The notes beneath the pieces are model-generated. The model did not search any database. It was not told the DNA's origin and was given only the letters and a program-made list of their open reading frames with translations. Positions 31,732 through 61,456 of a stretch of 64,000 nucleotides of DNA are shown here, piece by piece. Each line of letters starts with the position of its first letter. Positions within the stretch are counted from its first letter, which is position 1. The position numbers and the translations under genes were made by a program. Origin of the DNA: Paraphaeosphaeria minitans. Its lineage: Eukaryota > Ascomycota > Dothideomycetes > Pleosporales > Didymosphaeriaceae. The DNA lies in NCBI GenBank assembly GCA_015832175.1, contig WJXW01000005.1, forward strand, positions 1,302,001 through 1,366,000. The letters are read 5' to 3'.

Positions 31732-32895
31732 CTACGCGACAGCAACCCCATTCACCGGCGGCACCTCACTCGCCTTCGCAGCTGCATCCTTCTTAAACCT
31801 CTCCGCCCGCCCATAACTATCTGCGTACCCGCCCAACACGGCCTGCTCCACCGTAACAGGCGCATACTTTGCCTCTTCCCCTTCCGCCCTACAGTTGGGC
31901 AAGCACTCGACCACAAAATCCGGATTCCCCGAAAAGAACACCGGAATGCTGTACCGCTCGTGGCCGCTCTGGTTAATCACCCTGTGCGTGTTCGAAATGT
32001 ACTTGTCGTTGCTCCACCGCATCATCAAATTCCCGAGATTGACCACGAAGGCGCCGGGTGTGGGCTCGACGTCTAGCCACTCCTTGGTCTGGTTGTCCAG
32101 CACCTGCAGCCCCGCGACGTTATCCTGCAGCAGGATCGTTATGGTGCCAAAGTCCGTGTGCGCGCCGATTCCGCGCGTGAGCTTCTGGGGGCTGTCCGGG
32201 GGCTGGGACGGGTAGTGGAGCAGGCGCATGGTGGCGACGGCGCCCTCGGAGAACTCATCGAACCATGATTCCTCGAGATGCAGCGTCTGCGCGAGCACCT
32301 TTAGTATGTCCTTTGCGAGGTCGACGACCTGGTAGTAGTATGCGAGCGAAGTCTTCTGGAAGTCTTCGACATCGGGGAGGACCGTGGGGGAGGGCCACAT
32401 GTTGGGGCCTGAGTTGAGCTTCTTGTTGATGAAGTACGGGTGCGACTTTGAGATTTCGTCGCCGATGTAGAAGCCCTCCTTTAGTTCGGGCAGGGTTCCT
32501 TCTTCGAGGATTTGCGACTTGAGCAGCTCATAGCCGCGGTTCCATGTGTTTGTCGTGTCTGCGGACGCGCCGCTGTCAGCAGGGTACGTTGCGGGGGTCG
32601 AAGTAAGTTGCACCTTTGCTCACTTCCATCTTCTGCTCCAGCGACAGGTCGAAGAACTTCTTGTTCCAGTCCATGATGCCCTGCTGCAGCTCCCGTGGCA
32701 CGTTGTGTCCGGTGATCTGGAAGAAGCCATTGTGGAGGCAGCAACTGCGCACGTCGTCGACGAGCTTCTTCTTTGCCGCAGCGTCACCCCCATAGAAAGC
32801 TGCAGTCGGTGTCAACGCTGGATGCCATTGCGTCGGGCAGATGATTGCATACCTGAGAAGTCGAGGATCGGGGGTGCTTCGCCGACGCCAACCAT
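31732..32895 (-). CDS. hxnY: 2-oxoglutarate/Fe(II) dioxygenase, HxnY type
   Basis: Exons 32895-32853, 32799-32614 and 32558-31732 (351 residues). Introns are 53 nt and 55 nt. The second restores KMEVSKDTTNTWNRGYE, the conserved N-domain text. The C-terminal double-stranded beta-helix has the iron triad HTD (in IGAHTDFGTITILLQD) and the distal His of NTHRVIN, and the 2-oxoglutarate-binding Arg-x-Ser of RYSIP. This is the isopenicillin-N-synthase-like superfamily, which also includes thymine hydroxylases. The HXN regulon of A. nidulans contains one such enzyme, HxnY. I assign the symbol by family plus the other HXN genes 6-28 kb away. Substrate not determined. Alternatively it is an unrelated dioxygenase. 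Confidence 0.62.
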
Positions 32896-33668
32896 TTTGT
32901 GTGGAGTTAAGAGCGGTGATAAGAACGGCAGGTAGAGTGATGCTGAGGAGGTAGCAATGCTTGAGATGGTTTGATTGTAGGTCACAACGACTTGCTTCTG
33001 GTGAGCGGTTTTATGCACTGTACAGTCGAGTGGTATCACTTTCGTCCCCGCGACTACCCCTCCCACGCGACGTGAACAGTGGTGCACTGGTGGGGTTCGT
33101 GGTGGTATGTTGCCGGGCCTTCTCGGAGGCCAACCATAATGCACCCCCACCTTTGTCTATCGGTCGATAGTGACATGAGAAGAGGGATGCCCCAGGCCAG
33201 AATGCCTTCGGTGGGCTGTTTGCAGTCACACTCACACCACGACGAGCGCAAAGCTGATGGTCCGAAGACGATCCCCACCCATGGGAGAGGGCTACATTGC
33301 GAAACTTATTAAGGACCTTGCCACAAGCCTCCAATGAGCGTCTGATATTATACCTAGATATGGAATAGTTCCAGGCGGAAGTAAAGAAAGCAAGTTCCGA
33401 ACTGTAGCCATACAAACAGGCCGAAGCCAGTGGTCGACTATAGCCCTATTTTTGGGCAGCCAACTGCCCTGAGAACGAGGCCAAAGCCGGTAGCAATAGT
33501 TCAATCGTCACCTCGAGCAATCCCAGATCGTGCACCAAACTAAGGCGGCCCGGGTCGAAACATGCCGCTGTCGCATCCGGTCCTTGAGGCTGAAAGTCGT
33601 TGTACCGTGAGTTCGATAATGCGTTAGGGTCGATATGCATTCTTCCATCGTTGCCGGGAAGGAAAGCA
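32896..33668. other. Intergenic, no confident gene
   Basis: About 770 bases forming the upstream region of the dioxygenase gene and the 3' side of the next minus-strand gene. Short frames only. Confidence 0.45.
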
Positions 33669-36775: not shown

Positions 36776-37223
36776 ATGTCGCTTTCTTCGACGCAGTTGA
36801 GACGTTCATCGCGAAGGGAAAAGTTGGATGTTTTCAAGTGACGTCATCTTCCATGCATCGCGGCACTTGCCTTGGATGAATGATCAATGAAACATTTCGA
36901 GTCGTTCTAGAACACCACAAAAACCTGCCAACCTTCGCTTCTTTCTATCTCAATCGCTTTAACTCCCTCAGCAGGTAGTATTCGGGAAGTTCACGGTCGC
37001 GCACAATGCTCTCAGTCGATCAAAGCCATTGGTTCTGAGCTTTGCGGCTTGCGAAATCCAGCCAATTGGGGGCCAAGATTTTATGACTTACCGAGAAGCA
37101 TAGACTGATTGAAGAAATGATGGACCATATAAGTGCATGTGTAATGTTTACTGTGTTGTAAACCCACAGCACCAGTTTCTGGGAATCACTATTGTCCCAC
37201 AGACTCCAGCATCAAAGATCATC
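36776..37223. other. Intergenic, no confident gene
   Basis: About 450 bases of promoter-like sequence for the phosphatase. No motif recognised. Confidence 0.45.
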
Positions 37224-38302: not shown

Positions 38303-41300
38303 TTACGACATCCCTCCTCCGCCCACCAACCTCCACTGCACCAGACCTCTGAGCACCATCATCCCATCATGCACAACGGCCCATCGCACCTTCCCTAGAC
38401 ACCGACTGACGACAGCAGCCAGTCCATTCGTCCCTCTCTTGCCCATACCTCCCGCAATACCTCTTTCGTAGCCAGCCTCCAAGAGCCTCTCCCCATCGCT
38501 CTTCAACACTGTCTCCAGCAAGCTCGTCATCTCCGCCTGCGGGTCCCAGATAATCTCATCCTCATCTTCATCATGAGAACCAGATGAGCCCGGAGGAGAG
38601 GGACGCGCATACCACACGCCCCAAATAGTCAGCGTACCGAGGTATACCGCCCAAGGTAGGTGCCAGAGACGGCTGCCTCCGAGGTCGCTGGACGACGAGT
38701 CGGTGTCAATGACAGAAACACCTTGCTCGACGAGCGCGGCGGCATGCCAAACTGCGTTGCCGGCTTCTTTGAGGTTTTCGGCGACCCATTTCTTGACAAC
38801 TTTCTGGCTGCGAGCGTAGTCTGCTCGTGCGACGGGGCGGCCAAGGATGTGTCTTGCGCCGGCGTAGATTTGTAGGTCGAGGAACGGGGTGTGGAGGAGG
38901 ATGTGTGCAGAGTGGTACAGAGAGGAGATGGCTGTGTGGAATGCCTGGAACTCTTTGGCAATGGCATGTGTAGGAGACGGCAGGCGCGCTACATAAGATG
39001 AGCAAAACGCTTCGAAGTCGTGCGCCCAGGACTTGTATGATACTGCCAGACGGGTTTGCCAGTTGCCGAGCGGATTTACGTCGACAACAGCGAGGGATGT
39101 CTGGTCTCGCCGTTGCATGTCCCAGGCGATGGACATCAGGCCGTGTAGAAGTAGGGCTCGCGATAGTGCGTTGAGGTTCTTGGGAACGGAAACCGAAGCG
39201 GAGGGATTGAGATACATCTTCAGGCAGGATAAGAAGAGGAGGCTTGGAGGTTGCCTTTGGCGAAGCTGATGCCAGGTCTCTGCCGAGCCGGCCTCCCAGA
39301 GCGATTGATCGCATGGCAGATTCGACCGTAGTTCGAATGCCGACATACACAGTGACTGGCAGAATAGAACAGCATGCTGTGTGTCCCACATAAAGCATAG
39401 AAAGGCCAATCTCTTCTTCTGCTCAGCTTCTACCCAAGTCCGCCAATCATCTTCGAGATCGTCCGTCGCGTCTTCTAGTGTTGGTGGGCGGACTGATTGA
39501 CAGTCACTCCGCCGGATCAGGTTGATCAAAAGGCCGTGGAACAGATGGCTCATGTCATGCTGTTTTTGGCCAGCCCTGCTTTTGCCGAAACATTCGACAA
39601 GCAAGATGGTCTGCAGCACCCAGAGGTCCGGCTTCGCGGAGAATCCAGCGTTCGCGAAGATTTGTGGTCGAACGACATCGTGGATGCAGACCTAGGCATT
39701 GTTAGTTTGCAGCCACAATTTATTGACAAGCTACATTATTCCTGAAAGCCTGGACCCCGTGTTGCAATCCGAGTTACCCCCGGATATAAAACGCAACCAA
39801 CTTTGAGTCTGAGCCGAGTAAAGTGTACTTACGGCGAGTTGATGCGCATCTTTCTCCCCGTATGTAGCTCCAAGCAGTAAGACCGAAGCCAGCAGCAATG
39901 TATCGACATTACACGGGTCGAACGTCGACATATGGATCATGGGATATGTTGTGTTGAAGCGAGTGAAGAAGAGGTCGCAGTAAGTCTGGAGGGATGAGAG
40001 CGATAGAAGTGGGTGATCGCGCATGACCAGGCTGCCATCGGGAGCCGTGGGCTGAGCAATGTCGATTAGATCCAATACTAGTTGGCGGGCTAGCTCGTCG
40101 ATGATGGGCAGGCATCTTGATGGTTGTAGTAGCGACATCGGTCGCTCGAGGTCCAGCGGGGTTTGCCAGCTGCCCGGCTGTTTTGGGAAAGGATTTGAGA
40201 AGGCTTTGGCCATATGGCTCTCTGTGGTCTCCCGTTGCTCAGAGGCTTTTCGGCTTGTTTGTATGATCTCCGTCAGTGGTGGAGTGGCGAGTGCAGCTGG
40301 CGGCGACGTCTGCTGTGGAGAATCGGTTCTGTGCGAAGGATCGGAGCCGTAGTTTGCTGCTGTAGACCGAGACTTGTTGTTGTCGTCGACGATCATATGG
40401 TCAAGTTGTAGATCAAAGCCATGAGGGGGTTGGGAACCCGTATTGTTAAACTGAAATGAAGAGAATGGGTCGTTGATCACAGGCTGCATTGACGGTTGCT
40501 CAAAGCCATCAACAGAGAACAGCCATTGATAGTTGTTCATGGTAGTGAATAGGTTGTTGAAAGAGCTTGCCGTATCCGGGTTGAAGATGTCGTCAGACGG
40601 AGCATCGTTGAATATGAGAGATGCAAGAGGTTCCGGTTCAGCTTGAGGAAGATTGGTAGACCAGAACTGCTGGTCGATAGGAGATAACGATTCGGACCCA
40701 GATATTGCGTTAACGTCCAGGGCGGTAGGATGGTAGCCGCTTGCGATGCCAGAGTCGTGGTCGTCGAACGTAGAATGGCAGAGCGAAGGGTCACATGAGA
40801 GTGGAGATATTGGGGCGCCGTGTTCGTGAGACTGGAACTGGCTGAGTTCCGAGAGTGCTTGAAGTGGGTCCTCTGGCTGTGACTCGTGGGGTGCAGAGCT
40901 GGAACGCTCCTCGCCGTCGACGGAAGAATTCAAGGTAGGTTTCTTGGTTACGATCTTTCCTTCAGCGTCCTTCCACATGCGCTTGCGTGTGTTTAGGATA
41001 CCCTGACCTTTAGCCCCAGCTTCTTCGTCTTTTTGGCGGTGTCTTGCCATGTGGCGGTCTGCATGGTGTCAGCGATGTCCAACACTGAATGCATGGGCCC
41101 TACGGCAGGTAAGGTGGGAAGGAGAACTGAGACTGCAAGTCATCCACTTTTGGAGGATGCCCAAAGTGGAAAAGTGGACGCACGTGTTGGGACGATGCCC
41201 GTTTCGGCTTCTCACTCATGATGAAAGGAGACGCGGTTCCTTACCGAGCAAATCTCTCCTCTTGAAATGAGCCCTGCATCTCGAGCAGGTGAACTCGCCC

Positions 41301-41452
41301 GTAGAATGGTTGAGCAGGTGTCTTTGCAGATGCTCGGCCCTGGTGAAACTCCTGCCACATCCATCGTTTTGACAGATAAATCTCTTCTCCCCGTTCTTGC
41401 TCAAGTCTTTTCTCCTTCGTCCTCGTGGCATTGTAGAAGCTGTCGTAGCCAT
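38303..41452 (-). CDS. hxnR: C2H2 zinc-finger/fungal_trans regulator, HxnR type
   Basis: Exons 41452-41245, 41058-39833 and 39691-38303 (940 residues). The introns are 186 nt and 141 nt, longer than usual here. Near the N-terminus are two tandem C2H2 fingers: CQNDGCGRSF...HLQRHLLNH, and CSRCRAHFKRRDLLDRHMARH, the second being assembled only after the first intron is removed. The middle is a long Ser/Pro/Gln-rich region. The C-terminal half is a fungal-specific transcription factor (fungal_trans) domain with text such as CDLFFTRFNTTYPMIH and LLLASVLLLGATYGE. This two-finger plus fungal_trans architecture is that of HxnR, the nicotinate-pathway activator of A. nidulans, and the gene sits beside hxnS. 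Symbol by architecture and context. It would act in the nucleus on the divergent promoters to its right. Confidence 0.78.
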
Positions 41453-42353
41453 TATCGATGCTCAGCGCTCGAGCACAATGTGACACCCGTCTTGATCGGA
41501 CGTTGAAGGTTGGGGGGTGCGGAGATGGTATAATGGGGGTCGGAAGGGGTCCGAGACGACCTTATCCATCGTCTAGAAGCCAGCGACATCGTCGCCACGG
41601 TACTGTACAGATAGGCGCATAAACTACTCAGACAAGCCAGCACACCAATGGTCGGTAGCGCAAAAGCGCGCATGCGGATTGCGGGGTTGCTTGAGCCAGC
41701 CGATGTTCAGTGGGTGAATGGCAGAAGTGGGGTAGGAGGAAGATAAGGAGTGGGGGCATCGCGCTGCCACAATCAGTGTAGTGTGCGCGCACCGCCGCCA
41801 GAAGGCGCATGAACTACCGGATGGATGAGGCTGATGCTTGCAGTCCCACCTGTATCGTGGCTCAAGCCAGTGCCCCTGACACATCGCCATCGGCCGGCTT
41901 ACCCATTAGTCGTTTACTGCGATTAAAATGATCCGGGTTGCAGCACAGGGAGGACATGGAAGATACGGAACATTGCCGTGATAGCAACAAAGGTGCGTCG
42001 GCATCGTCGGGTTATGCACCGACTATCAAACGATACGGAGTGACTCGTTGGAAAGAGCAGTGCATCGAGGAAGTTTAGGGCCTTAACGTAAGTAGGCGCA
42101 TTTGGGCGTACGGTCGCTGTCAGGTCATTGTATTGCGAAGCCGTCCGTCAATACGTAGCAAGCCATTATCGACACCCTCGTCAATGCTTACAAATAACCA
42201 CAATAGCGATGGGTTTCTGTCCAAATGGAAATCGGGTTGCAGTCTTGCGCATCCAAGTATATCTATCATATTATCATGTACGCTATGCACAAATCGTAGA
42301 AATGCAAAGTAACGCCGCGAGACACTGAACCACATCCGTCTCCACAAGACCAT
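41453..42353. other. Intergenic between the regulator and the hydroxylase
   Basis: About 900 bases containing the regulator's promoter and the hydroxylase's 3' end. Frames of up to 90 codons on the minus strand show no motif. Confidence 0.45.
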
Positions 42354-45300
42354 CTATGACACAGCGACAAAGAAACTTGTCTCACCCTCCTTGCGCTTTA
42401 CTTCGGCCCGCCTCACCAAGTCATCTCCCACCGCCAAGCGCAATCTCTCCGCCGTGGCAGGGCTGTCAAACTTCCAGGCATCCTTGCCTACACCCCCAAG
42501 GATGCTATGCCCATTCATCTTCCTCGCCGCTTTGACGGCTTCCCTCATCGCGAAGAAGATCGTACATCCCAAGAACAAGGGAGGCTCGCCAATGCCTTTG
42601 CTGCTTTGCACACTGCGCAGATGGTTCCACGACAGGGGATTGCCGTCACTGTCTGTCCGCAGCATGCTCACGTTGAACACCTGCGGTATATCGCTGAAGC
42701 CAGGAATCTTGTATGTGCCTGGACCGCGGGTAAAGAGCTCGCCCGACCGCGTCCAGAGCGATTCTTCCATCGTGAAGAGACCTTGGCCTTGGACGAAGGC
42801 GCCTTCGATTTGACCGTAATCGATTGCAGGGTTGATAGAGTTGCCAACATCCTGAGTGAAGTTAGCGATGTTGCATGCAAACAGCAACAGGTCTTACCAT
42901 CAACAAGTCGGTTCTCAAAACAGTGGAATCTCCAGTCAGTAAATCGACTTCGACCTCCGAACAACCCGCGCCTTGCGTGAAGTAATAGTACATGGGCTTG
43001 ACGGTGTTGATATCATAGTTGCCCCACTGGTACCCAATTCTAGGCATCTTCCAGAAGCCGTTGGCTGCCAGGTTGACTCGATCGAGGTAGGCAGCGTGGA
43101 CGATTTCCTTGAGCGGCGCATCCTTGCCTAGCTTCTCGCGATATGGCTTCAGACGTTCGTTGAGTTGATCACATGCATTCTTGACTGCCATACCATTGAG
43201 GTCGGATCCTGATGAGGCGGCTGTGGGTGAAGCGTTCGCGATCTGATATGTGGAACTGTCTTGTGTGAAGATCGCGTCGAGCGGGGTGCCCAATTCTTGT
43301 GCAGCGATCTGACACATCTTTGTGTACAAACCTTGGCCCATCTCAGTACCACCGTGATGTAACAGTACACTGCCATCGTGATAAATCTGGACGTATGCGC
43401 CAGCCTGGTTCAGATGCAAAGCTGTTGCAAAACTGAGGCCGAATTTGGTAGGCACGAGGCATATGCCGCGCTTCTTCCAGGGGTTCTTCGCGTTGAAATC
43501 TTCGACTGCCTTCTTTCGCTTCTCATAATCGGCAGACTTTGACAGCTGCTCTAGGATCATTGGAACATGCCAGTCTTCGTCGATGTGTTGTAGGAAAGGA
43601 GTATGCTCCCCGATCTTGTAGAGGTTCTTCTGGCGCAACTCGTCAATATCCATTCCTAGTCCTTCTGCGATGTTGTACATGATCGTTTCAGAGAAATATT
43701 GGCCCTGAGGCGCACCGAATCCGCGGTAAGCCGTGTTGCTGTGGATGTTTGTTTTGCAAACGTGGCCTCGAAGGAGGACATTAGGACACTCATAGGAATT
43801 ATCGAAGTGCGTGAGGCAGCGGTCCATGACAGCACCAGACATGTCTTGCGAAAAGCCCGCATTGTCGTACACATCTGCCTCCATAGCAAGCAAAGTCCCC
43901 TCTTTCGATACACCCACTTTCCAGCGTGCCTGAACAGGATGTCTCTGCCCACTGAGAAGCATGTCTTCATCGCGATTAAGCATTAATCGCATCGGGCGCT
44001 TCTCCTTCTTCGCTGCGATAGCGAGGTAGCAAGCGAAAGGAACACTGCGTGACTCTTTGCCACCGAAACCTCCACCCATACGCTTGACCCGTGCGTTGAT
44101 GCGGTTGCTCGGGACTCCGGTGACGGCAGACACGAACTCTTGAGTCTCCATAGTGTTCTGCGTTGATGACCAAACCTCCATGCAGCCGTCTTCGCCAGAA
44201 GGAATTACAAGCGCAGCATTAGTCTCGAGGTAGAAGTGTTCCTGGACTTGGTGTCAGCTACGTATAGTTGCAAATGCTGACAGATGCTTACCTGTCCGCC
44301 CATTCGGGTCTGCCCTTCGAATATTCTGTCGCACTTCGCGAAAGCTTCATCCATCTTGTCTTCAAGAGCAAGACCTTTCTTTAGAAGTTTGCCATGTGGG
44401 AAGAAGCTGTTCGCTTCAATAGCCTCGTCTATGGTCAGGATCGCAGGCAGAGGTTTGTATTCAACCTTGACTGCCTTCGCTGCAGCTTGCGCTTCCAGTG
44501 CGGTCTCAGCATATACCATTCCAATGACTTGCCCATGATGCCGAACTTCTCCGTCGGCAAAAAATGGCTCATCTTTTTTTATGGATCCCCAGATGTTCTG
44601 ATCCTTCGGAAGACAGTCTTTGTCGAGGTACCCAACTACGCCGCTCATGGCCAGAGCAGGCTCCCAATCGACGCTGAGTAGCTTTGCATGCGCTTTTGAA
44701 GAGAGAACCAAGCCGCCGTAAAGCTCACGCTCAAAGTGAGGCATGTCGTCGATGTACTCCGCCTCTCCAGTGCATTGCTTCAGTGCAGAGAGATGGGCGA
44801 TTTGTTTGCCGACGATCCGCAGCTCATATGGGTTCACATCATCGCGCACACCCGTCGAGATGGCACGGTGGATTTCGTCAATGACATTTGTATCCACGTC
44901 ACCAAGTCCAAGTTCAGCGGCAGACTCATGCCAGAAACGGAAGAACAGCGACAGAGTCAAAGTCTTGCGATAGTCGGCCATGCCACCAGGAACTGTGAAG
45001 GGAAGGTCGTAGTCTTCAAGTAGGCCGGCCAACGCGATGTCCAACGTTTCGGAGTTGAACCAACGCTTACCTAGTAATGCTGCTTGCGTCTTCGGAGATT
45101 GTTTAGTTGTTGGAGCCATGCCACCATATACGATTGAGAGTTCTTGAATATTGTCATATTCATCGAGCCTTACTCGGAAGGCGGCGGTAACAATTGCAAT
45201 ATCGTCATCCTTCCTCTTGGCTTGCTTATACGCTTTGAATACCTCGCGTACGTTGGGTGCTGGTAAAGGTATCCTGATGCGACTCAGCGCTGCATCCGGC

Positions 45301-47746: not shown

Positions 47747-49091
47747 ATGCCCAAAGCAGATACCCCGCCAGGCTTCAGGCCTCTCAAGGACACGAGCCTG
47801 TTCACGCCTTTCAAGCTGGGCTCGCTCAATCTCGAGCACAGGATAGTGCAAGCGCCCTTAACCCGCATGCGCTCTACGAAGGAAAGCGAAGGCGTCACGG
47901 TGCCCAACGACTTGGTTAAAGAATACTACAGCCAGAGAGCGACAAAAGGCGGCTTGCAGCTGACTGAAGCCACCGACATCTTCAAATATGTAGGTTTTTG
48001 AATAATTCCAAGCAATGCAACAATGCTGACAACGTAGGCTGGAAACTACCCCGGTGCACCCGGATGCTTCGCAGATTCGCAGGTCGCCGCCTGGAAGAAG
48101 GTCACTGACGCTGTCCACGCAAAGGGCGGCTACATTTTCTCCCAGCTTTGGCACACGGGTCGCGCCTCACCGCCTTCCTTCCGCAACGGCGAGCAAACCG
48201 TAAGCGCAGGCACCATTCCCATGACCGGTAACTGGATCGACGGCGCTTCGTGTGAGGAGAACCCACCACGGGCATTGACCGTTGATGAGATCCACGACAT
48301 CACAAAGAAGTGGGGTGAGGCAGCGAAGAAGGCGCGCGAGGCTGGATTCGACGGCATTGAGATCCACGGCGCGAATGGATACTTGCTTGAGCAATTTTTG
48401 CACGACAATGTTAACAACAGGACTGACGAGTACGGTGGTTCTATCGACGGCCGAATTCGATTCCCTCTCGAAGTCATCAAGGAGTGCTGCAAGGCCATTG
48501 GCGCCGACCGTGTTGGCATCCGATTGTCGCCGTACAACTACTTCCAAGACACCAAGGACAGCAAGCCGAACGAGCACTGGGAGTACCTCTGCGAGAAGAT
48601 CGCTGCTCTTCCCGAAAACGAGCGACCAGCATACGTACACATGTGAGTCTCAACCGTGTCCAATCCCACTTCCATGCTGACCTGTGTCTAGGATCGAGCC
48701 CCGCTTCGACGAAGTCCTCGACGAGCAGGCCAAACTCGATGCCCTTTCCACTTACACCTCCAACCCGAACGAAGGTGTCGAAGCCGAGCTTACCATCAAG
48801 CCAAAGACCGACAACCTCTCCCGCTTCCGCCAAGTCCTTGCTAAAGGTAACGTCCGCTTCATCGCTGCCGGCAACTTCAACCGTGACAACGCGGTGCCCA
48901 AGCTCGACGCGGACGACGCCGACCTCATCATCTTTGGTCGCCACTTCATCGCCAACCCCGATCTGCCACGGAGATTGGCTGAGGGCCTCGAACTGAACCC
49001 GTACGACCGTACGACCTTCTACGGTGCAGACCCGCCGCAGAAGGGCTACACAGACTACCCTTTCTATGAGGAGACTGCTGCTTCTGCGTGA
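47747..49091 (+). CDS. hxnT: Old yellow enzyme, NADH:flavin oxidoreductase (HxnT type)
   Basis: Exons 47747-47989, 48038-48642 and 48692-49091 (415 residues; introns 48 and 49 nt). The start is the first ATG, followed by PKADTPPGF. The FMN TIM-barrel motifs are present: FTPFKLGSLNLEHRIVQAPLTRMR, LTEATDIF, FSQLWHTGRAS, the substrate/FMN segment DGIEIHGANGYLLEQFL with the paired His-x-x-Asn, NNRTDEYGGSIDGRIRFPLE, and the phosphate-binding FGRHFIANPDL. Such enzymes reduce activated C=C bonds with NAD(P)H. In the nicotinate route HxnT is placed at ring reduction after trihydroxypyridine formation. It is divergent from hxnS. Intact. Confidence 0.85.
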
Positions 49092-50458: not shown

Positions 50459-52001
50459 CTACAACTGCGCCCTTACCTCAGTGCTCGCCCTTCGTTTCGA
50501 TCCTACACTGGCAGCCTCGCCTTCCACCTCAGCCCACCGCTGTTCGACATCGGGCTCACACTGATATGGAAGCAGCCACTTGCCTACCCCGTGCCACCGC
50601 CACGGGAATGGGTCGGAATTATCCTCCAAGCCATTCTCCTGCAGCTCCTGCTCGCTTGCAGGCTTTCCTTTACCATTGAACGCTGAAAACTCCTTGAGGA
50701 GGCGGTCGCGCTCTTGCTGTTCAGGACCATCGTGCACATGATACAGATGTTGCTGTAGGTTTCCGCGCGCAACAACCTTCTCGGTGCGCTCGCGTCGACA
50801 TCGCTCGTACACCTTGAGCGCTTTCTTCTTCTCCTCGTCGGACTTTCCTGACAGGCGGCCGAGACAGAGACCTAGGACGTGGCCATCCTCGAGAGACATA
50901 CCGGCGCCAGAGGCAAGGTATGGAAGCGTGGCGTGTGCGGCGTCACCCAAGATGGTGAAGGCGCCGCTCTCGTGCGACCAGGTAGGGTTGAGGTTTGGTC
51001 GGATGCAAAGGCGCCATTTGAAGACCGAATCGCAGAGGGCAAGCAGCTTTGGGATGCGCGGGTCCCAGTCTTTGTACAAGGCGCACATTTCCTCTACGTT
51101 GCCGGCGACTGTGTTGGCACCGGCGGGCATGTCGTCGGGGACAAGCAGGACCATGTTGAAGAGCTTGCCACCTCGAAGAACGTAATTTACTGCGACGAGT
51201 TAGCAATTACGACCGATATGTGAGCGGTTTGGAGCATACCAGCATGTGCATCAGGACCCATCCAGTAGTTGACCTGCGGGTTCTCGATGAACGGCCTCAG
51301 CTCAGGATCCTTCATCATATCCTCCGTATTCAGCAGCAACCGATACGCAAGATCGCCCGTAAGAACCGGCGGATCCGGACGCCCCAGCAGAATCTCTCTG
51401 CACCTGCTGTTAATACCATCGGCGCCGACAATCAAATCGGCCTTTCTCCTACTCCCGTTCTCCAACACAGCAACTGAAATCGTCCTCCCTTCCTCCGGAT
51501 GCTCATACTCGATGTTTGCAACCTTTGAATTAGTCTCCATCGTCGCACCGAGCTCCTTCGCCCGATCTAGAAGCTCAAGATGCAGGTTTGCGCGGTGAAA
51601 GTCCCAGAACGGGGTCCCTAGCTCCTCCGCATACTCGTGGAAGTCCATGTGCGCGATCTTGCCGCCCTTCCAGTGAAGGTAGTTGCATTGCTTCGGCCGG
51701 GTAGCATGCCGGGCGAGCTGCTCTTCCATGCCCCATGAAAAGAGCACCCGAGATGAGTTGGGCAGGACTTGTATTCCTGCCCCGATCTCGCCGATTTCTG
51801 GGGCCGCTTCGAGGATGTGGACGTTGTGACCGGTGAGGGCGATTGATATGGCGGCACCGAGACCGCCGAGACCAGCGCCGATGACTATGACCTGGAATTG
51901 TTAGCTACGGCACCTCGAAATCGAAGAGAGGACATCACATCGAGCTTGCTGTCAGCATCCCTGTGCTGTTGCTGTATGACTTCAGGCTTTGATCTACCCA
52001 T
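50459..52001 (-). CDS. hxnX: FAD monooxygenase, salicylate-hydroxylase-like (HxnX type)
   Basis: Exons 52001-51939, 51891-51240 and 51189-50459 (481 residues; introns 47 and 50 nt). The first intron lies just before the dinucleotide-binding motif VIVIGAGLGGLGAAISIAL. The second FAD motif is the DG pair of LIVGADGINSRCR, and the third is FTILGDAAHATLPYLASGAGMSLEDG. This is the group A flavoprotein hydroxylase fold of salicylate and 6-hydroxynicotinate monooxygenases, which perform NADH-dependent oxidative decarboxylation and hydroxylation. In the nicotinate pathway HxnX turns 6-hydroxynicotinate into 2,5-dihydroxypyridine. The C-terminus (STEVRAQL) is not an evident peroxisomal signal. Symbol by family plus cluster context. 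Confidence 0.82.
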
Positions 52002-52672: not shown

Positions 52673-53729
52673 TCAGAATCCGGGGTTGTAGGCCTCGCCT
52701 GAAGCCTGCTTCTTCAGGATCTCTCCTGCTGGTGCAGGCATCTTCGCACCTTCCGGCACCTTGTTATGCGCCTTGAAATCGTCGGCCATTTGTTCCATAG
52801 TAACCCATTCGACACCCTCGTGTTTGTTGATGTGCTCGATAATTCTGGGGACGTCAGTTATTGTGCAACTTCATTGGGATTTGTTTGTCTCACCTCTCGT
52901 GCATCAGGACAACGTGTGGCCGTCCTGAGACGTCAGGATGTATGGTCATCGGGAACACAAACTCATCGTATTCCCTGTAGAAGTAGTCGAAGTGGTCCAT
53001 CCAGATCGCTTCCACGTCTCTCGGGTTGACCCATCCGTGGCTGTTCGCTGCCTTCTTCATGAACATCATCGGGGGGAGATCGTCGATGTACCAGCTGCCG
53101 GGTATTTCTACGAGGCCGGTGTCTTCGCCTCTGATGAGAGGCTTCATCCAATCCTCCGCCTTCTTCGAGTAGTCAATCTTCGTCCACGTGTCGCCTGTTC
53201 GCAGCCAGTAGCACTTGTGGTCTTCGTGCGACATTGAGTGATCGTACTCGATACCGTAACTGAGCAGCAAGTCGCAGCCCTCTTTCGACGTCTCCCACCA
53301 TGGCGTGACGCTACCGCGTGGAGGCTTGCCGCAGAACTCGGTGAGCTGCTTGTAAGTCTTGTCGAGCACATCGCGCTGCTGCTCGAAAGTCATGTCTGTG
53401 GGGTTCTCGTGTGAGTAGCCGTGTAGGCCGATTTCATGGCCTGCGTCACGGACGGCTGCGCAGTCTTCTGGGAATGTGTCAAGAGTGTGCCCTGGGATGA
53501 ACCACGTGGCCTTGATCTTGTACTTGTCGAAAAGTTTGAGAAGGCGCCGTGTGCCTTCGGTTCCTGCCCAGAGTCCTGTGCATCGTCAGGGACTGAGTAT
53601 CTGGAGGATGTCGTTCGGCTTACCTCTGCTGATGTCGCTCGTGGAATCTTCGCCTCCATATGAACCTAGCCAACCTGCAACGGCATCGATATCGACACCG
53701 TAGCACACAAGAACACGCTTCTTTCCCAT
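52673..53729 (-). CDS. hxnM: Polysaccharide-deacetylase-fold cyclic imide hydrolase (HxnM type)
   Basis: Exons 53729-53624, 53575-52894 and 52844-52673 (319 residues; introns 48 and 49 nt). The N-terminus [20 protein letters not shown] carries the first metal-site Asp. [15 protein letters not shown] gives the two His of the NodB HxxxH zinc motif, and [15 protein letters not shown] supplies the later His. There is no signal peptide, unlike true chitin or xylan deacetylases, which fits an intracellular amidohydrolase. This branch of the family includes cyclic imidases and allantoinase-like PuuE. HxnM is reported to open 3-hydroxyglutarimide to hydroxyglutaramate. It is followed on the same strand by hxnX, with the amidase gene upstream. 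Intact. Confidence 0.85.
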
Positions 53730-54326: not shown

Positions 54327-54440
54327 AACACATCTTTCACGATTCCAACACATCTTTCACGATTCTAACCCATCCTTTACGATTCTAACCCATCCTTTAC
54401 GATTCTAACCCATCCTTCACGACTCTAACCCATCTTTCAC
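54327..54440. repeat. 20-bp tandem repeat overlapping the amidase stop codon
   Basis: 5.7 copies of a 20-base unit of the type AACCCATC(T/C)TT(C/T)ACGATTCT, at 54327, 54347, 54367, 54387, 54407 and a partial copy at 54427. The amidase stop (54417-54419) and its last codons (VKDGLES) lie inside the array. Confidence 0.9.
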
Positions 54441-56618
54441 TGAGGATATCCTCCCTTGTAAGACAACACCTGCACCCTTCAGAATCGCATCAATCACCTT
54501 CGCCGCTCCAAGTACCTTCTCTTCTTGCAGCCTCCGCGCTACGACCTGCACACCGATAGGCATGCCATTCATAGCATCCAGGTCAAATAAGTTCCAGTTC
54601 CATTCGTCCAGAGCGTTCCTCGGTTCATAAGCAGCCATGTCTGCGACCGCGGTACCATCAAGCTCTTTCGAGACCTCGCCAGCGGGTAGTACGACCGAAG
54701 GATAGTCCACGAAGTTGAAAATCTTTGTGTAGCCCACCCAGCGACATTTTCGATGGGGGACTGCGGAGTGTGGCATCACTGGGCATAACAAGATGTCGAT
54801 TGGCTTCCCCGAAGCCGAAGATTTCGTCGAGTTCCATAGATCGAGGTAGCGCTTCTGGGCGGCTAGCTTTTGTTTGTTCAGCTGCCAGTAGTCGTACACC
54901 GAAATTGGTGTCCCCCGGTTGACGAGCGCTTCTACGTGTGGAATGAATGGCTCTCCTCCAGCCGCGACGTCACGTTTGATATCTTCACCTCCATCGGCGG
55001 TGTAATATTGGTCCTGTGAGTCTGAGCGGGATTAATCTGAGTCTGAGACTTTTGGTTCATACCATGATGTCGATGCACTCTTGATGCAACATCCCTGGCT
55101 TCCATGGCACGATTTCATGGCCTGCCTGTGCAAGCTTCTGAGCCACCTCATCTAGTACTCGTGCTACCGGCGGGTGCAGTCTGACAACTCCATCGTCTTG
55201 CATGACCGCAATGACCAAGGGTCGTGTTTGAATATCTGTGAACATGTCGTCTCGCCAAGACAGTGGACAGCATTTCGGATCGTCATCCCAAGGTTTAATG
55301 TCAATGACAGCTCTAGTAACGTCAATGAGCGAATCGATGCTCCTGCTCATAGGCCCTATCACAGAGGGCACATGTTCTTGCCCTTCGGTGGAAACCGAGA
55401 CGCCTTGGTAAGGGAGCCGTGTGCTCTATACAAGTATGTCAGCGGTGAATCCAAGGCTACAATTTAGTCCCAACATGTGGAAACCAAATCCCTAAAAGCA
55501 ATCGCGGTTTATGCTCTATGGATCACGGGTCAGCTTACACTAGGCTTGAGACCATACAATCCTAGCATATGCGCAGGAATGCGTATGCTTCCACCAATGT
55601 CAGTGCCCCAGCCTACAGCTGAGCCTTGTAGGGCGAGCAGTGTGCCTTCTCCACCTGTGGAGCCTCCAGGGGTAAAATCGGTATTTCTCGGATGAGTAGT
55701 AAGACCAAATATGGGATTCTCGGTTTCGCACCACTACCGTGAGTCAACACGAGAACCAATGAGGCAAGCCACAACAAGTGCAGGGTAGAATCGGTCGCTG
55801 GAAAATGCAAGTTCACACTGCATCCACTGTGAGATACCGAGGCATTTGACTTACCATGATACTTTGCGGCAGGTTTGATTTGGCGATGATAATGGCACCC
55901 ATTCTCCGCAAGAGCGTAACCAAAACACAGTCCTGCTTTGCAGGCTTGAACGCTCGCCCAACGTACCCGAGCGTACTATCGTACCCTTGGACATCAAATT
56001 GGTCTTTCAGCGTCATGGGTACTCCATGCAGAGGCCCCACAAGGCGTCCATTTTCTTTATAAAAGCGATCCAAGTCATTGGCTTGTCTCAATGCATCGTC
56101 GAAAAAAATCTCAGTGAGGCTGGCAATTTCAGTGAATGTCCGTCAGGGGCTGTGCTGCCGCCGTCGACATACCAGTTCGTCTGTCATGATCAGCAATGTG
56201 CACGATGTTTCCGTGGTGGAGCTCGGTACTTGGTTGTGAGCTGCTACGGCTCTGCGAAAATGGCGTGAGTATGGCACCGATTCAGTCTTGGTCCGCGCAG
56301 CGACCGAGGCTCACCTTTTGATGTATGCAGTGCACAACTCGGTAGCGGTCAAAGTCCCAGCTGAAATGGCTCCAAGAACATCTCCAATGCTGTCGAAGCT
56401 CGTCTCCTGTGACGTGGCGTCGTCTACCGTGCCATTGCTCGGTCCGTCTGGGTGCAGGGTCTAAGGAGCTGTCAGTGCAGCACATCGCATAGGCCAGAGG
56501 ATAGTCCTACTCCAGATGAGGCGTCTTGGGCCTCAGAAAACCGGCTGATGGCCTCGTCACGACTATTGCGCTTCTTGTCGACTATTTGCAGCCATTGCGG
56601 CGTGGCGGAAACAGTCAT
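54417..56618 (-). CDS. hxnN: Amidase-signature hydrolase (HxnN type)
   Basis: Exons: 56618-56511, 56460-56315, an exon starting 56251 (RAVAAHNQ...), 56119-55855, 55733-55539, 55425-55063 and 55013-54417. Clean introns are 56461-56510, 56252-56314, 55734-55854, 55426-55538 and 55014-55062. The amidase signature is complete: catalytic Lys in MTLKDQFDV, the cis-Ser region GGSTGGEGTLLALQGS and the nucleophile Ser in TDIGGSIRIPA. The text between HNQ and LTEIFFDDA (56120-56230) could not be joined in frame with a good donor, so one boundary is unresolved, or a 1-nt lesion exists. HxnN hydrolyses hydroxyglutaramate to hydroxyglutarate and ammonia in the nicotinate route. It is divergent from hxnV. 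Confidence 0.78.
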
Positions 56619-57090
56619 GTTGCACGTTGAGAAGGAGGTAGGAATGACGCTGCCTGGCGACGGTGCCAGAAAAAGCCCACGACAATCACAATGCACGCGA
56701 CACCATAATGTCAACAATCAGCTAGCTGCCGTTGATCCCACGGCAAGGTTACGAGATGCTGGGACCGAAGGGGCCTGTTGGTGAGATGAACAGTGGGGGA
56801 ATACACGGGCGCACGGGACCTCGGGAGCGCGCTCTGCGCCCTGGAATTCCCACGCTTTCGTCGCGCTCCGTAGCAGTACAATGGCGCCCACGGTACCCCT
56901 GGGAGAGGTCACCCCATCTGCTGCAGAATTTCGTAAGCTCTGCATATCTAGATCAAACATGGCGCACCCCAACTCTGCAAAACCAGTGTTGCTGCCGCTG
57001 AGAATGGGCAGAGGGTCGAACGTTTGCCCCTCCACGCACCCCCATTCTACGCCCTAGGCGATCGGGCATTTGGTTCCCAAGACTTATAGG
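56619..57090. promoter_or_regulatory. Divergent hxnN-hxnV promoter region
   Basis: 472 bases between divergent pathway genes. A 105-codon minus frame (57035-56718) overlaps but has no motif. A shared operator with the hxnS-hxnT interval is expected but was not identified. Confidence 0.45.
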
Positions 57091-59178
57091 ATGGCCCCGT
57101 CAATATGGCCTTTCATGAAGCGCTCAACGTCGTCCAGTACCAGCTCTAGCTCTAGCCCTCCTGTCCATCCGAAGGCCGTCAAGATGGCACCAGGTATCAC
57201 CACAGATTCTATGCCCTCCACCTCAAGCAGCTTCGATACCCAGAGCTCGACCGGTGCCAGTGCAGCCAATGGCTGGGTAACTGGATACGAGACCTTTCTG
57301 AGCGATGTATTGGTGGTCGGTGCAGGACCAGCCGGTCTCATGCTTGCGTAGGTACATTCTCGTGGCAGGTGGAACTTGATGGCTGATCGGATGGGTAGAA
57401 ACAACCTTGTGCGATTCGGCATCAAGACGCAGATCGTCGACAACCGACCCGATCGTACCTCCACCGGCCGTGCTGACGGCCTACAACCGAAGACCATCGA
57501 GACGCTGAGGCAGATGCGCGTTGCCGAACCGTTACTGCGGAAGGGTGTCAAGGTCTTTGACATTGCCTTCTGGAAGTCGACCAGCGAGGCACCCATGCGC
57601 CGTACCGGCCGCGAAATTCACTACCCCCCAGTCGTCGACCTGCTGGACCCTTACATCCTCCTTGTACACCAGGGCATGGTGGAGGCCACCTTCATCGACG
57701 ATCTGTCCGAACGAGGCGTCGAGGTGCTCCGCAATACCGCTTTTGCCGGCTTTGAATATACACCAGACCGTGTGCGGCCACTCACGGTAAACTGCAAACA
57801 GAACGTTTCACAGAGCAGCAAGAAGCTCGCCACGCGCTACATTGTTGGCTGTGACGGGGCTCATTCGGTGGTGCGCAAATGCATTCCAGGTGCGACCCCC
57901 GTAGGAGCTTCATCGGATGCTGTCTGGGGTGTGCTCGACGGTGTGCTCGACACCGATTTTCCGGACATCTGGAGCAAGGTCGTAGTACACTCCGACGAGC
58001 TCGGTTCAGTCCTCATGATTCCTCGCGAGCGGAACATGACACGCTTGTACATTGAATTGAAGTCCAGCTCAGGCGCTACAACCCCTCCTAGAGAGCGCCA
58101 AACCCAAGAGTTCGTGCAAAAACGCGCCCAAGAGATCATGCGACCGTACCGATTAGAGTGGAAAAACGTAGAATGGTTCGGACGCTATCAGATTGGTCAG
58201 AGGGTCGCAGCTCGTTTCTCGGACGATGAGCGACGCGTCTTCATCGCCGGCGACGCCAGCCACACACATTCGCCCAAGGCTGCACAAGGAATGAACACTT
58301 CAATGCATGATGCCTGGAATTTGGCGTGGAAGATGAACTTCGCAGTCCGCAACCTGGCCAGACCCGCGTTGATCGAAACGTACGAGCAAGAGCGCAAGAA
58401 GATTGCCCAAGACCTCATAGATTTTGACTACGAGCATGCGAATGCCTTCTCTGCAGGCGATCCGAAAGCTCTCGTAGACAACTTCAACAAGAACGTTGCA
58501 TTCATTTCCGGCTATGGCGTCAACTATGAGCCGAACGTCCTCAACATGGCGTCTAAGGGATACACGCGCGGCAACCTTACTCCAGGCTTCCTCCTCCCAC
58601 CTGCCAAAGTGACTCGCTTCATCGACGCGAATCCTGTGGACATTCAGACCGATATTCCGGCTCTCGGTCAATTCAGAATCTACATTTTTGCCAGGAACCT
58701 ACATGCAGCTATGCCGTTCCTCGACGTACTGAGCAAGGCTCATCAGTCTAATTCCTCTTACGTTGGCCGCATTACCATGGCAGGAAACGCATCATACACT
58801 ATGCAACCACCTCTCGCAGCTCCACATGATCAATTTGTTTGCCCGGAGAGATACACACCTGTCAGTGGCATCTTTACATATGCGGTCGTGACGGATATGA
58901 GCCGCGCCGACATCGAAATCACACACCTACCACGCATGCTTCAAGACTCATGTTGGTCGTTCTACCTGGATGACGTTCCTCAACTGGATACCCGGAAACA
59001 GACAGTCATGGACAAGTGGCTTGATGGACTCGATGATGGTGAAGTTGTCATTGCGAACGTCCGCCCCGACGGGTATGTTGGTACTGTGAGGCGCTTTGCA
59101 GATGGTGGGTTTGAAAGTGGGATGAACGCTGTGGCATGGATGGATGAATACTATTCCCAGTTCTTGCGAGATACGTAA
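57091..59178 (+). CDS. hxnV: Phenol 2-monooxygenase-like FAD hydroxylase (HxnV type)
   Basis: Exons 57091-57347 and 57399-59178 (678 residues). The 51-nt intron falls inside the FAD motif DVLVVGAGPAGLMLA/NNLVRFG. A Ser/Thr-rich leader of about 70 residues precedes the Rossmann fold. Further signatures are ADGLQPKTIETLRQ, the DG motif YIVGCDGAHSVVRK and FIAGDASHTHSPKAAQGMN, the third flavin motif. The C-terminal thioredoxin-like domain of the phenol hydroxylase group follows (FRIYIFARNLHAAMPFLDVL to NVRPDGYVG). Family members hydroxylate phenols with NADPH and oxygen. In the nicotinate route HxnV makes trihydroxypyridine from 2,5-dihydroxypyridine. The long leader may be partly untranslated if a later Met (57109 or beyond) is used. 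Confidence 0.85.
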
Positions 59179-59880
59179 ACGCTTCCGAGATCTTGCTTTA
59201 CGTATTGCATTGTACGGGCGTTTACGGGATGTACGGAGCCATTTCTAGCTGTCAACTGGGATCATCTGTGAATAGAATCAATGACACCATTCAATAAACC
59301 ACTCATGTACTCAACACCTCCGTTGTATCGGGTATGCGACACAGTCTCCGTTCACAAATTATGGCAACCCATCGTAGTGGGTCTACACCTGGGGGTCTAG
59401 TCCAAGCATTCGAGCGGGGTACTTCTCAAGCTGTTTGCTATTCACCCACCAACGCACAACCGAAGTAGTCTATGGCAGTATCTTCGGCGATGAGGTGATA
59501 TCGATTGCTATCGCCGTGGTCCTACGCTAGCATGGCTGGGTCCACTTCTCCAGCCTACTGTTTCCCCACTCCCCACTCTTATCAAGCAACCTCCACTCCT
59601 CTAGTGACAACCCAGCAGCATCACATTACAGATTACCTTACCTGGTGCAGATACGGGCTGCGGTTGGTGCCGATGAAAGCGCTGACTCGGAGAAGCACAC
59701 GCGGTATGTTCTCGTATCTGTGATGATTGGATAGGTGGGATGAGGGAAGCACGAGGGGCCCCAAGCTGGCTTGTATATAGATGAGTAGTTGTTGTGAAAC
59801 AACACGTTGTCAATCTGCACTGCGGACTTGCACGCAAGGTTTACACAACCATTCTTCGACTTCATAGATCGGTCACCGAG
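59179..59880. other. Intergenic, no gene seen
   Basis: About 700 bases between hxnV and the permease gene, both on the plus strand. Probably the permease promoter. No motif defined. Confidence 0.45.
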
Positions 59881-61456
59881 ATGATGTCCGATGCTGCAAT
59901 GGATTCCGAGAAGTATCAGCCCTCCGAGACGATGGCCAAGGACCAGGAGATTGGAGTGACACACGCTGTTGTGGACAAAGCTGCCGAACGAGCATATGGT
60001 TCGTATCTCTTCTCTGCCTATCATCCAAGTTTAACAATGGAACAGTCCGCAAGCTCGACATCTACCTCCTGCCCTTCCTCTCTCTCATGTACTTCTTCAA
60101 CTCAGTCGACCGCAGTAATCTCGGCAATGCAAAGACAGATGGCATGGACAAAGACCTCGGGTTCACTGGCGAGGAGTACAGCTTGTTGATCCTACTGTTT
60201 TACATACCCAACGGACTGTGCGACTTGCCGTTGAACATGTTGACGAAGAAGTACAGTGGAAAGATCATGCTGCCTTCTTTGATGCTGTTCTGGGGCTCAA
60301 TGGCACTATTACAATGTGTCGCGAAGAGCTTTGGTGGCCTTCTTCCGTTGAGATTGCTCATTGGAGCTTCCGAAGCGGGTTTCTTTGCCGGAGTGGTCTT
60401 TTACCTCACCCTTTTTTACACACGTGGTGAACTTGGATTTCGCATCTCGATTTTCTTTGGAAGTGCGCTGCTTGCGGCAGCGTTCAGCGGGTTGATCTCG
60501 TACGGAGTGTTCCAAATCAAACATTCCATCCCTGGGTGGAAGTGGTTGTTCATCATCGAGGGTAATTTTCCTATTCAGACTGGAATTTCATCGAATACTG
60601 ACTTCCTACAGGTGCCATGACTGTCATCTTGGCTCTCATCGCATTCTTCTGGCTTCCAGCAAGCCCATCCAGCGCTTGGTTCCTGAACGACGCCGAAAGG
60701 CAGCTTGCCGAACGCCGCACTCTCCGCGATCTCTCGAGCACTGCGCATTCAGAGTTCAGTATCAAAGACTGCTTTCGCACCTGGAAAGACGTTAAGTTCA
60801 TCGCTTGGTGTATCATCTCATTCACCTACCCTGTCGCCTTCGCAACAGCGTCGAACTTCCTCCCGCAAATCGTCGCGCGCCTGGGTTATAGCGTGGTCAA
60901 GACGAACCTCTGGACCGTGGCACCTAACGCTGTGGGTTTCTTGTTCCTGCTCGTAGTTACGTACAGCAGCGACCACTTTCGCGAGCGCACCTACCACATC
61001 ATCTTTTCGCTATGTGTCTCGCTCATCGGTCTGATAATTCTGGCAACAATCGATGTCATAGCGAACAAAGGCGTTGCATACTTCGCATGCTTCATGCTCT
61101 GCGCTGGCGCGTACATTCCATCGTGTCTCGTTCACAGCTGGCACAACAACAACAACTTATCCGAGTCTTCTCGCGCGGCCACGACAGGCTTGCTTGTCGG
61201 TCTTGGTAACCTCGGCGGCATCATCAGCGCAGCTACGTTCAGAGTGGAATATGCGCCGAAGTATGTGCCCACTCTGGCTGCCACGGCGGCGTGTAACGTC
61301 GTGTGCATCATGACGACTGCTGCCTTGGGCATATGGATGAAGATGGAGAACCGGGCTCGGGACAGAGAACAAGGCGTCAAGATTAGGCCAGAGGAGGTTC
61401 CGACGGAGATGCTTGGTGATGGAGAGAAAAGCGAGATGTGGAGGTTCTTCACTTAG
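59881..61456 (+). CDS. MFS permease, anion:cation symporter family (HxnP type)
   Basis: Exons 59881-59998, 60046-60561 and 60612-61456 (492 residues; introns 47 and 50 nt). The hydrophilic N-terminus is followed by RKLDIYLLPFLSLMYFFNSVDRSNLGNAK, a hallmark first-helix region of the Dal5/Tna1 allantoate and nicotinate permease family. SLLILLFYIPNGLCDLPLN (helix 2) follows, then GASEAGFFAGVVFYLTLFYTRGELG. About twelve hydrophobic segments are visible, ending in a cytosolic basic tail. Tna1 is the yeast high-affinity nicotinic acid transporter. In the HXN regulon the corresponding gene is hxnP (a second permease, hxnZ, exists). I leave the symbol blank because the two are not separable by eye. 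It probably imports nicotinate or a hydroxylated derivative. Confidence 0.8.

What the first reader, a model, noticed from the sequence alone, without database searches (positions are those of the whole stretch)
31732..61456. A nicotinate-degradation (HXN-type) gene cluster
Nine genes in 30 kb match one by one the families of the Aspergillus nidulans HXN regulon: 2OG dioxygenase (hxnY), C2H2/fungal_trans regulator (hxnR), XDH-like hydroxylase (hxnS), old yellow enzyme (hxnT), salicylate-hydroxylase-like (hxnX) and phenol-hydroxylase-like (hxnV) monooxygenases, deacetylase-fold imidase (hxnM), amidase (hxnN) and a Tna1/Dal5-like permease. Any one could be coincidence; the full set side by side is not. 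The families and the two-finger regulator are seen in sequence, the pathway order is from published work on A. nidulans, and the assignment is inference. The arrangement (R-S-T...X-M-N-V-P contiguous, Y detached) differs from a simple copy of the Aspergillus layout.
Basis: partly seen in the sequence, partly recalled or inferred. Interest (0 to 1): 0.9.

Follow-up and report, generated by a model that had tools for sequence, protein, structure and literature searches.

The report
Fungal nicotinate-degradation (hxn) gene cluster
This stretch of a fungal chromosome carries nine of the eleven genes that let Aspergillus nidulans use nicotinic acid (vitamin B3) as a nitrogen source; it is a new example of a known gene cluster, with one pathway gene and one transporter gene not found beside it.

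Summary
The observation and the reading hold. Nine intact genes at 31732-61456 correspond to A. nidulans hxnY, R, S, T, X, M, N, V and P. The XDH-like protein carries the published HxnS signature (FATALH; the genome's other XDH has FTALF). The regulator has two C2H2 fingers and a Fungal_trans domain. Relatives of X and R lie on one contig in 50 of the 54 species found in both capped hit lists; a few Y and R relatives are already named as hxn genes. The predicted HxnR site GHGGGG is about threefold enriched upstream of the cluster genes and absent upstream of the two ORF genes that separate hxnY. The host is Paraphaeosphaeria minitans or a near relative (Pleosporales). Corrections: the set is 9 of 11. 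hxnW (the step between HxnT and HxnM) was not found in 114 kb around the locus; hxnZ was not seen. hxnY is split off by only two or three genes. Side finding: HxnX relatives mostly end in R-[ASP]-x-L, usually not a canonical PTS1 peroxisome signal. New member of a known kind; modest interest.

The parts
31732..32895 (-). hxnY, 2-oxoglutarate/Fe(II) dioxygenase, 351 aa, 3 exons (32895-32853, 32799-32614, 32558-31732)
   Evidence: Gene model; PF03171; 62.5-63.7% identical to three relatives, two of them named hxnY
32896..33668 (.). hxnY upstream region with 5 GHGGGG sites
38303..41452 (-). hxnR, two C2H2 fingers plus Fungal_trans, 940 aa, 3 exons (41452-41245, 41058-39833, 39691-38303)
   Evidence: Pfam; 99.8% over 868 aa to a Paraphaeosphaeria minitans protein
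41453..42353 (.). hxnR upstream region with 3 GHGGGG and 7 HGATAR sites
42354..46943 (-). hxnS, XDH-type nicotinate hydroxylase, 1497 aa, 3 exons
   Evidence: Pfam; FATALH and Ser-Gly signatures against the genome's other XDH
46944..47746 (.). shared hxnS-hxnT divergent promoter
   Evidence: orientation; 3 GHGGGG sites, no HGATAR
47747..49091 (+). hxnT, old yellow enzyme, 415 aa, 3 exons
   Evidence: PF00724; PDB relatives OPR/OYE
50459..52001 (-). hxnX, FAD 6-hydroxynicotinate monooxygenase, 481 aa, 3 exons; C-terminus RAQL
   Evidence: active-site spacing; relatives; PDB
52673..53729 (-). hxnM, cyclic imide hydrolase, 319 aa, 3 exons
   Evidence: HpPgdA 3qbu E 6.4e-129
54417..56618 (-). hxnN, amidase, 567 aa, 8 exons including an 8-nt exon (56180-56173)
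   Evidence: PF01425 at 77-537, E 3.8e-105
56619..57090 (.). shared hxnN-hxnV divergent promoter
   Evidence: orientation; 2 GHGGGG sites, no HGATAR
57091..59178 (+). hxnV, phenol-hydroxylase-like monooxygenase, 678 aa, 2 exons
   Evidence: PF01494 and PF07976; PDB 8r2u, 1pn0, 2dkh
59881..61456 (+). hxnP, MFS transporter, 492 aa, 3 exons
   Evidence: PF07690 at 51-417

Best explanation
This is the hxn cluster of a Pleosporales fungus (Paraphaeosphaeria minitans or a near relative) and works as in A. nidulans. HxnP takes up nicotinate or 6-hydroxynicotinate; HxnS hydroxylates nicotinate; HxnX makes 2,5-dihydroxypyridine; HxnV hydroxylates that; HxnT reduces the ring; an enzyme doing the HxnW oxidation, coded elsewhere, makes the cyclic imide; HxnM opens it; HxnN releases ammonium. 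HxnR switches the set on, probably through GHGGGG sites. Shown here: gene content, intact frames, HxnS-type signature, linkage of X, R and Y across fungi, site enrichment. Inferred from the A. nidulans work: substrates, order, induction. Unknown: which enzyme is, or replaces, HxnW.
For: Families and intact models. HxnS signature against the genome's other XDH. HxnX has 7 of 8 active-site residues reported for A. nidulans HxnX at the same spacing; 110 of the 120 listed relatives hold that pattern. HxnV has 4 of 6 published residues at exact spacing. Two Y relatives named hxnY and one R relative named 'nicotinate catabolism cluster-specific transcription factor'. Same-contig linkage among species in both capped lists: X-R 50 of 54, X-Y 14 of 25, R-Y 17 of 30, all three 10 of 17. 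GHGGGG 22 sites in 5009 bp; 8.6 expected and 0 of 500 shuffles reach it; 6.8 in resampled non-coding DNA and 0 of 2000 reach it. The S-T and N-V divergent pairs match couples described as conserved (PMC8478523, section 2 read).
Against: hxnW not found at the locus and hxnZ not seen. The published couples hxnM-hxnW and hxnP-hxnY are not kept. AreA sites (HGATAR) are not enriched: 17 found, 12.1 by shuffles (42 of 500 reach it) and 15.8 by resampling (829 of 2000), none in the S-T or N-V promoters. HxnX ends in AQL, not a canonical PTS1, although PMC9304392 says PTS1 is conserved. At exact spacing the HxnX Gln59 position holds Leu (a GAGIQ Gln lies two residues off), HxnV Asp65 is one residue off, HxnV Ile126 holds Leu, and the HxnT Tyr372 position holds Glu. 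Y linkage is lost in 11 of 25 and 13 of 30 species. Most relatives bear generic names, some point elsewhere (encD for Y, OpS4 and salicylate hydroxylase for X). No tree and no expression data.
Confidence: 0.94

Rival explanations
1. A related but different N-heterocycle or aromatic-acid degradation cluster, whose XDH, salicylate-hydroxylase-like and phenol-hydroxylase-like enzymes act on another substrate.
For: The best PDB hits of X by sequence are 8gsm (named 4-hydroxybenzoate decarboxylase), 8x38 (decarboxylative vanillate 1-hydroxylase), 8r2t (unnamed FAD protein) and 8rqh (tropone 2-monooxygenase), ahead of the 6-hydroxynicotinate monooxygenases 8uiq and 5eow. hxnW was not found.
Against: HxnS-only active-site signature. 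8gsm, 8x38 and 8r2t differ from X at 2, 2 and 3 of the seven active-site positions at which X agrees with A. nidulans HxnX (alignments, read by eye). Two Y relatives and one R relative are named after the hxn or nicotinate genes.
Confidence: 0.04
2. A partial or decaying hxn cluster: without hxnW the pathway stops at 5,6-dihydroxypiperidin-2-one, so the fungus cannot draw nitrogen from nicotinate this way and the genes persist for detoxification.
For: No short-chain dehydrogenase found in 114 kb around the locus. In two genome searches with all candidates scored, one shows a single C5 match, about 519 kb away (C5:783085), the other none on C5.
Against: All nine genes are intact, including hxnM and hxnN, which act after HxnW. 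Many other dehydrogenases of this family exist in the genome, several with the Ser-Tyr spacing of HxnW (by eye).
Confidence: 0.12
3. The real hxnY is not the gene at 31732 but the second 2OG dioxygenase just beyond the window (C5:1367453-1368449), about 4 kb past hxnP, since hxnP-hxnY is a published couple and HxnY's nearest structure is thymine-7-hydroxylase.
For: The outside gene hits thymine dioxygenase 5c3p best (3e-47); the window gene hits it only in the eighth row (1.8e-34).
Against: P0184 and P0208, named hxnY, and A. mulundensis P0185 (named encD) are 62.5-63.7% identical to the window gene and 30-31% to the outside one. Length 351 against 349 aa in A. nidulans. 5 GHGGGG sites upstream. 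Y relatives share a contig with X in 14 of 25 and with R in 17 of 30 species.
Confidence: 0.03

Closest known systems
hxn regulon of Aspergillus nidulans (clusters 1/VI, 2/VI, 3/I)
   Same: Equivalents of S, T, R, P, Y, X, V, M, N; two-finger regulator; HxnS signature; divergent hxnS-hxnT pair
   Different: Here nine genes lie in one 30-kb locus with hxnM and hxnN inside it; hxnW and hxnZ were not found in it; hxnY is not beside hxnP; HxnX ends in AQL instead of SRL
Eleven-gene hxn clusters of Cyphellophora europaea and Hymenoscyphus repandus (PMC8478523, text only)
   Same: hxnM and hxnN inside the main cluster; hxnN-hxnV divergent (C. europaea); hxnS-hxnT divergent
   Different: Those have all 11 genes and keep hxnM-hxnW; here hxnW and hxnZ were not found and the gene order differs
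hxn loci of other Dothideomycetes (Massarina, Diplodia, Karstenula, Kalmusia and others)
   Same: X, R and Y relatives on one contig in Massarina and both Diplodia; R and Y in Karstenula and Kalmusia. In Kalmusia the Y and R tags are N0V90_012075 and _012079, so three tags lie between, much as here
   Different: Their full layouts were not seen; in several (Lentithecium, Lojkania, Melanomma and others) Y lies on another contig

Membership tests
HXN nicotinate cluster | XDH paralogue of HxnS type: FATAL with Ala insertion, His instead of Phe, Ser-Gly instead of Ala-Ser | tested here: met
   FATALH and TAASSGSD in the window protein; FTALF and TAASASSD in the genome's other XDH. Residues from PMC5746545 section 2.2 (read)
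HXN nicotinate cluster | HxnS Pro in place of HxA His985 | tested here: inconclusive
   THF against TPF by eye; the pairwise alignment places gaps there differently
HXN nicotinate cluster | HxnR: two C2H2 fingers and Fungal_trans, related to a named HxnR | tested here: met
   Two zf-C2H2 stretches, weak (E 2e-4, under Pfam's cut-off, as also weak in A. nidulans), and Fungal_trans 8.9e-48; 44% and 60% identical in two pieces to a Colletotrichum protein named as the nicotinate cluster factor
HXN nicotinate cluster | Clustering of hxn genes with each other | tested here: met
   Window layout; X-R on one contig in 50 of 54 species
HXN nicotinate cluster | HxnX active-site residues and monooxygenase family | tested here: met
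   7 of 8 published residues at the same spacing; Gln59 only by the GAGIQ motif, two residues off
HXN nicotinate cluster | HxnX canonical PTS1 | tested here: not met
   Ends in AQL, which fits only the relaxed formulas quoted in PMC12316961; canonical in 3 of 120 relatives. Weakens this one published trait, not the gene identity
HXN nicotinate cluster | HxnW short-chain dehydrogenase within the cluster | tested here: not met
   None found in the window plus 50 kb of flanks. In A. nidulans too hxnW lies apart from cluster 1, so this does not exclude membership; presence elsewhere in the genome not decided
HXN nicotinate cluster | HxnZ second MFS transporter | tested here: inconclusive
   Only hxnP gave an MFS match among the 40 of 76 window ORFs scanned; an HxnP query found no second transporter near it on C5 (87 of 141 candidates scored), but HxnZ may be too distant for that query
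HXN nicotinate cluster | HxnR-dependent induction by a nicotinate derivative | not testable with these tools
   Only site enrichment was seen
HXN nicotinate cluster | Reciprocal best hits with the A. nidulans proteins | not tested
   No A. nidulans Hxn sequence appeared in the hit lists shown

The most novel reading that the evidence does not exclude
Outside Aspergillus, HxnX enters the peroxisome by a conserved non-canonical C-terminal tetrapeptide, Arg-[Ala/Ser/Pro]-x-Leu. It often has Val at position -2, which no PTS1 formula quoted in PMC12316961 allows, so the receptor must read the Arg at -4. In these fungi the HxnW step is also run by an unlinked dehydrogenase.
Probability: 0.3. Interest if true: 0.5.

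Novelty: new member of a known kind. Interest (0 to 1): 0.32.

Why it matters
It adds a Pleosporales member, in a species that (recalled) is a mycoparasite used in biological control, to the eukaryotic nicotinate pathway that PMC9304392 says has been studied by experiment only in A. nidulans. It gives an independent genome in which the predicted HxnR site GHGGGG is enriched, and marks two testable points: which enzyme does the HxnW step when hxnW is not in the cluster, and how HxnX reaches the peroxisome, if it does, without a canonical signal.

Tried and rejected
1) The gene at C5:1367453-1368449 as the true hxnY: rejected. 2) Finding hxnW: Pfam searches PF13561 and PF00106 scored only 18 of 207 and 19 of 227 candidates; protein queries scored 48 of 48 and 92 of 92. 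Dehydrogenases with the HxnW Ser-Tyr spacing were seen by eye on C1, C4, C13 and C16. None could be shown to fit the published length and position of TG(X)3GXG as well (three partial or whole models, the rest by eye), so none is named. The dehydrogenase beside the hxnM paralogue on C13 has Ser-Tyr spacing 13, not 15 (spliced by eye), so it is not put forward. 3) AreA sites as support: not enriched. 4) NCBIfam gave only general families for Y, M, N and P. 5) One of the HxnX patterns run matched 0 of 120 because I miscounted its gap; it is not used. 6) Literature: (coniothyrium minitans + nicotinic acid) gave 2 papers and (paraphaeosphaeria + nicotinate) 1 paper; listings only, none on this subject by title or abstract start. 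The main text of PMC8478523 does not contain Pleosporales, Paraphaeosphaeria or Coniothyrium, but its supplementary cluster maps could not be read, so a Dothideomycetes example may already be drawn there.
Full report
WHAT IS THERE. The window lies at C5:1302001-1366000 of a 47.45-Mb fungal genome in 30 contigs. Nine genes between 31732 and 61456 can be spliced by hand with GT-AG introns into intact proteins: hxnY 351 aa, hxnR 940, hxnS 1497, hxnT 415, hxnX 481, hxnM 319, hxnN 567, hxnV 678 and hxnP 492. Published A. nidulans lengths are 349, 865, 1396, 388, 461, 307, 543, 620 and 491 (PMC8478523 table 1; HxnR from PMC5746545 section 2.4; both read). Domain positions agree closely for HxnP (MFS_1 51-417 here, 49-417 there) and HxnN (Amidase 77-537 here, 78-531 there). 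HxnS-HxnT and HxnN-HxnV are divergent pairs with shared promoters, two of the couples described as conserved in PMC8478523.

WHICH FUNGUS. HxnR is 99.8% identical over 868 residues to a protein of Paraphaeosphaeria minitans. HxnY is 96% identical to a cluster representative from P. sporulosa, and HxnX is 94% identical to one from Didymosphaeria variabile. The host is therefore P. minitans or a near relative: Didymosphaeriaceae, Pleosporales. The public HxnR model starts at residue 73 of mine and lacks the finger exon; the exon with the first finger and most of the second is intact here (41452-41245), the second finger being completed in exon 2.

IS THE XDH-LIKE PROTEIN HxnS? PMC5746545 section 2.2 gives features that separate HxnS from purine HxA. 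The window protein has FATALH where the only other MoCoBD_1 locus of this genome, on C3, has FTALF, and TAASSGSD where that one has TAASASSD. The His-to-Pro change is seen by eye but the alignment is ambiguous there. The two proteins are 56.3% identical over 1205 aligned positions.

ARE X, Y AND R THE HXN ONES? The searches listed the best 120 of 2674, 720 and 301 relatives of X, Y and R. Two Y relatives carry the name hxnY and one R relative is named nicotinate catabolism cluster-specific transcription factor; most others bear generic names, and a few other names (encD for Y; OpS4 and salicylate hydroxylase for X). One R relative (P0357) is an annotated protein with both an old-yellow-enzyme and a Fungal_trans domain, as a fused model of neighbours hxnT and hxnR would give. 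HxnX keeps seven published A. nidulans active-site residues at the same spacing (Val -9, His, Val +2, Tyr +4, Val-Leu-Leu +15 to +17), and 110 of 120 relatives do too. The eighth, Gln59, is met only by the GAGIQ motif two residues off. The three best solved structures differ at 2, 2 and 3 of the seven positions (by eye). For HxnV, four of six published residues sit at exact spacing; the Asp is one residue off and Ile126 is Leu at that spacing. HxnT keeps His and Asn of the OYE pocket; the Tyr is not at the published spacing. HxnM matches HpPgdA 3qbu at 6.4e-129, the structure the authors also found closest (PMC9304392).

REGULATION. The HxnR site predicted in PMC8478523, GHGGGG, occurs 22 times in the 5009 bp upstream of or between the nine genes. 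Dinucleotide shuffles give 8.6 and none of 500 reaches 22; resampled non-coding stretches of the window and flanks give 6.8 and none of 2000 reaches 22. The hxnY upstream region has five; the upstream regions of the two ORF genes between hxnY and hxnR have none in 328 and 472 bp. This argues that hxnY remains in the regulon and the inserted genes do not join it. The site is itself a prediction, so this is support, not proof. AreA sites are not enriched: 17 against 12.1 and 15.8.

WHAT IS MISSING. In A. nidulans the step between HxnT and HxnM is done by HxnW, a short-chain dehydrogenase (PMC9304392, results section read). None was found in the window or the 50 kb fetched around it: six dehydrogenase queries find each other's loci at E 5.3e-8 or better, but their best match in the 114 kb has E 0.89. 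Of two genome searches with all candidates scored, one has a single match on C5, about 519 kb away (48 of 48), the other none on C5 (92 of 92). In other fungi hxnM and hxnW form a divergent couple; here hxnN stands upstream of hxnM instead. Several unlinked dehydrogenases have HxnW-like Ser-Tyr spacing by eye, but none could be called HxnW. hxnZ was not seen among the 40 of 76 window ORFs scanned. The most likely reading is that both are elsewhere in the genome.

HOW IT WORKS. By A. nidulans (PMC9304392): nicotinate to 6-hydroxynicotinate (HxnS), to 2,5-dihydroxypyridine (HxnX), to 2,3,6-trihydroxypyridine (HxnV), to 5,6-dihydroxypiperidin-2-one (HxnT), to 3-hydroxypiperidine-2,6-dione (HxnW), to alpha-hydroxyglutaramate (HxnM), to alpha-hydroxyglutarate and ammonium (HxnN). 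Everything after the gene identities is inference from that work.

A SIDE FINDING. PMC9304392 states that the PTS1 of HxnX is conserved in other Pezizomycotina. The protein here ends in RAQL. Of the best 120 relatives, 90 end in R-[ASP]-x-L, 3 fit the canonical PTS1 [AS][KR][ILM], 43 the relaxed formula and 57 the plant formula quoted in PMC12316961 (passages seen); 48 have Val at -2 before a final Leu, Ile or Met, outside all of these. Columns -4 to -1 hold 3.1, 2.4, 1.5 and 3.0 bits and column -5 holds 1.7, while columns -6 to -20 hold 0.3 to 1.0. Part of that contrast comes from right-aligning a tail that varies in length; the sequences are related, and some hits are partial models. It suggests a selected, unusual signal and is testable with GFP fusions. 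One search lists three papers that hold HxnX and peroxisome terms; in the parts of them that I saw, this tail is not described.

VERDICT. A well-supported member of a known cluster type, with two open details. Interest is modest.

Noticed in passing
HxnX C-terminus, window 50462-50473, and relatives P0001-P0120: C-terminal R-[ASP]-x-L in 90 of 120 relatives, mostly not a canonical PTS1.
   Followed up: partly
HxnY C-terminus, window 31735-31746, and relatives P0121-P0240: C-terminal tail of small hydrophobic residues, VAVA in 35 of 120 relatives, with the last four columns more conserved than those before. Meaning unknown.
   Followed up: no
G000:C13:1225503-1233626 (L041, L042): Unlinked group holding an HxnM paralogue (59-84% identical in pieces), an amidase-like gene, a zinc alcohol dehydrogenase-like gene, a short-chain dehydrogenase and a C2H2-finger gene; may be another imide- or amide-degradation cluster (families other than HxnM read by eye, no Pfam run).
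   Followed up: partly
G000:C5:1367453-1368449 (L003:1453-2449): Second 2OG dioxygenase about 4 kb past hxnP, nearest to thymine-7-hydroxylase.
   Followed up: yes
54326-54440: 20-bp tandem repeat, 5.8 copies, that overlaps the last codons of hxnN and runs into its 3' flank.
   Followed up: no
56180-56173: Eight-nucleotide exon in hxnN, needed in my model to keep the frame through HNQTNCLTEI.
   Followed up: no
41452-41245: First exon of hxnR, with the zinc fingers, is missing from the public P. minitans model P0241.
   Followed up: yes
8252-10944, 12367-12861, 15329-16222, 27833-28957, 35052-36805, 61616-62960: Other genes: MutS, uroporphyrinogen decarboxylase, DnaJ, pirin, histidine phosphatase and spherulin-4 families.
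   Followed up: no
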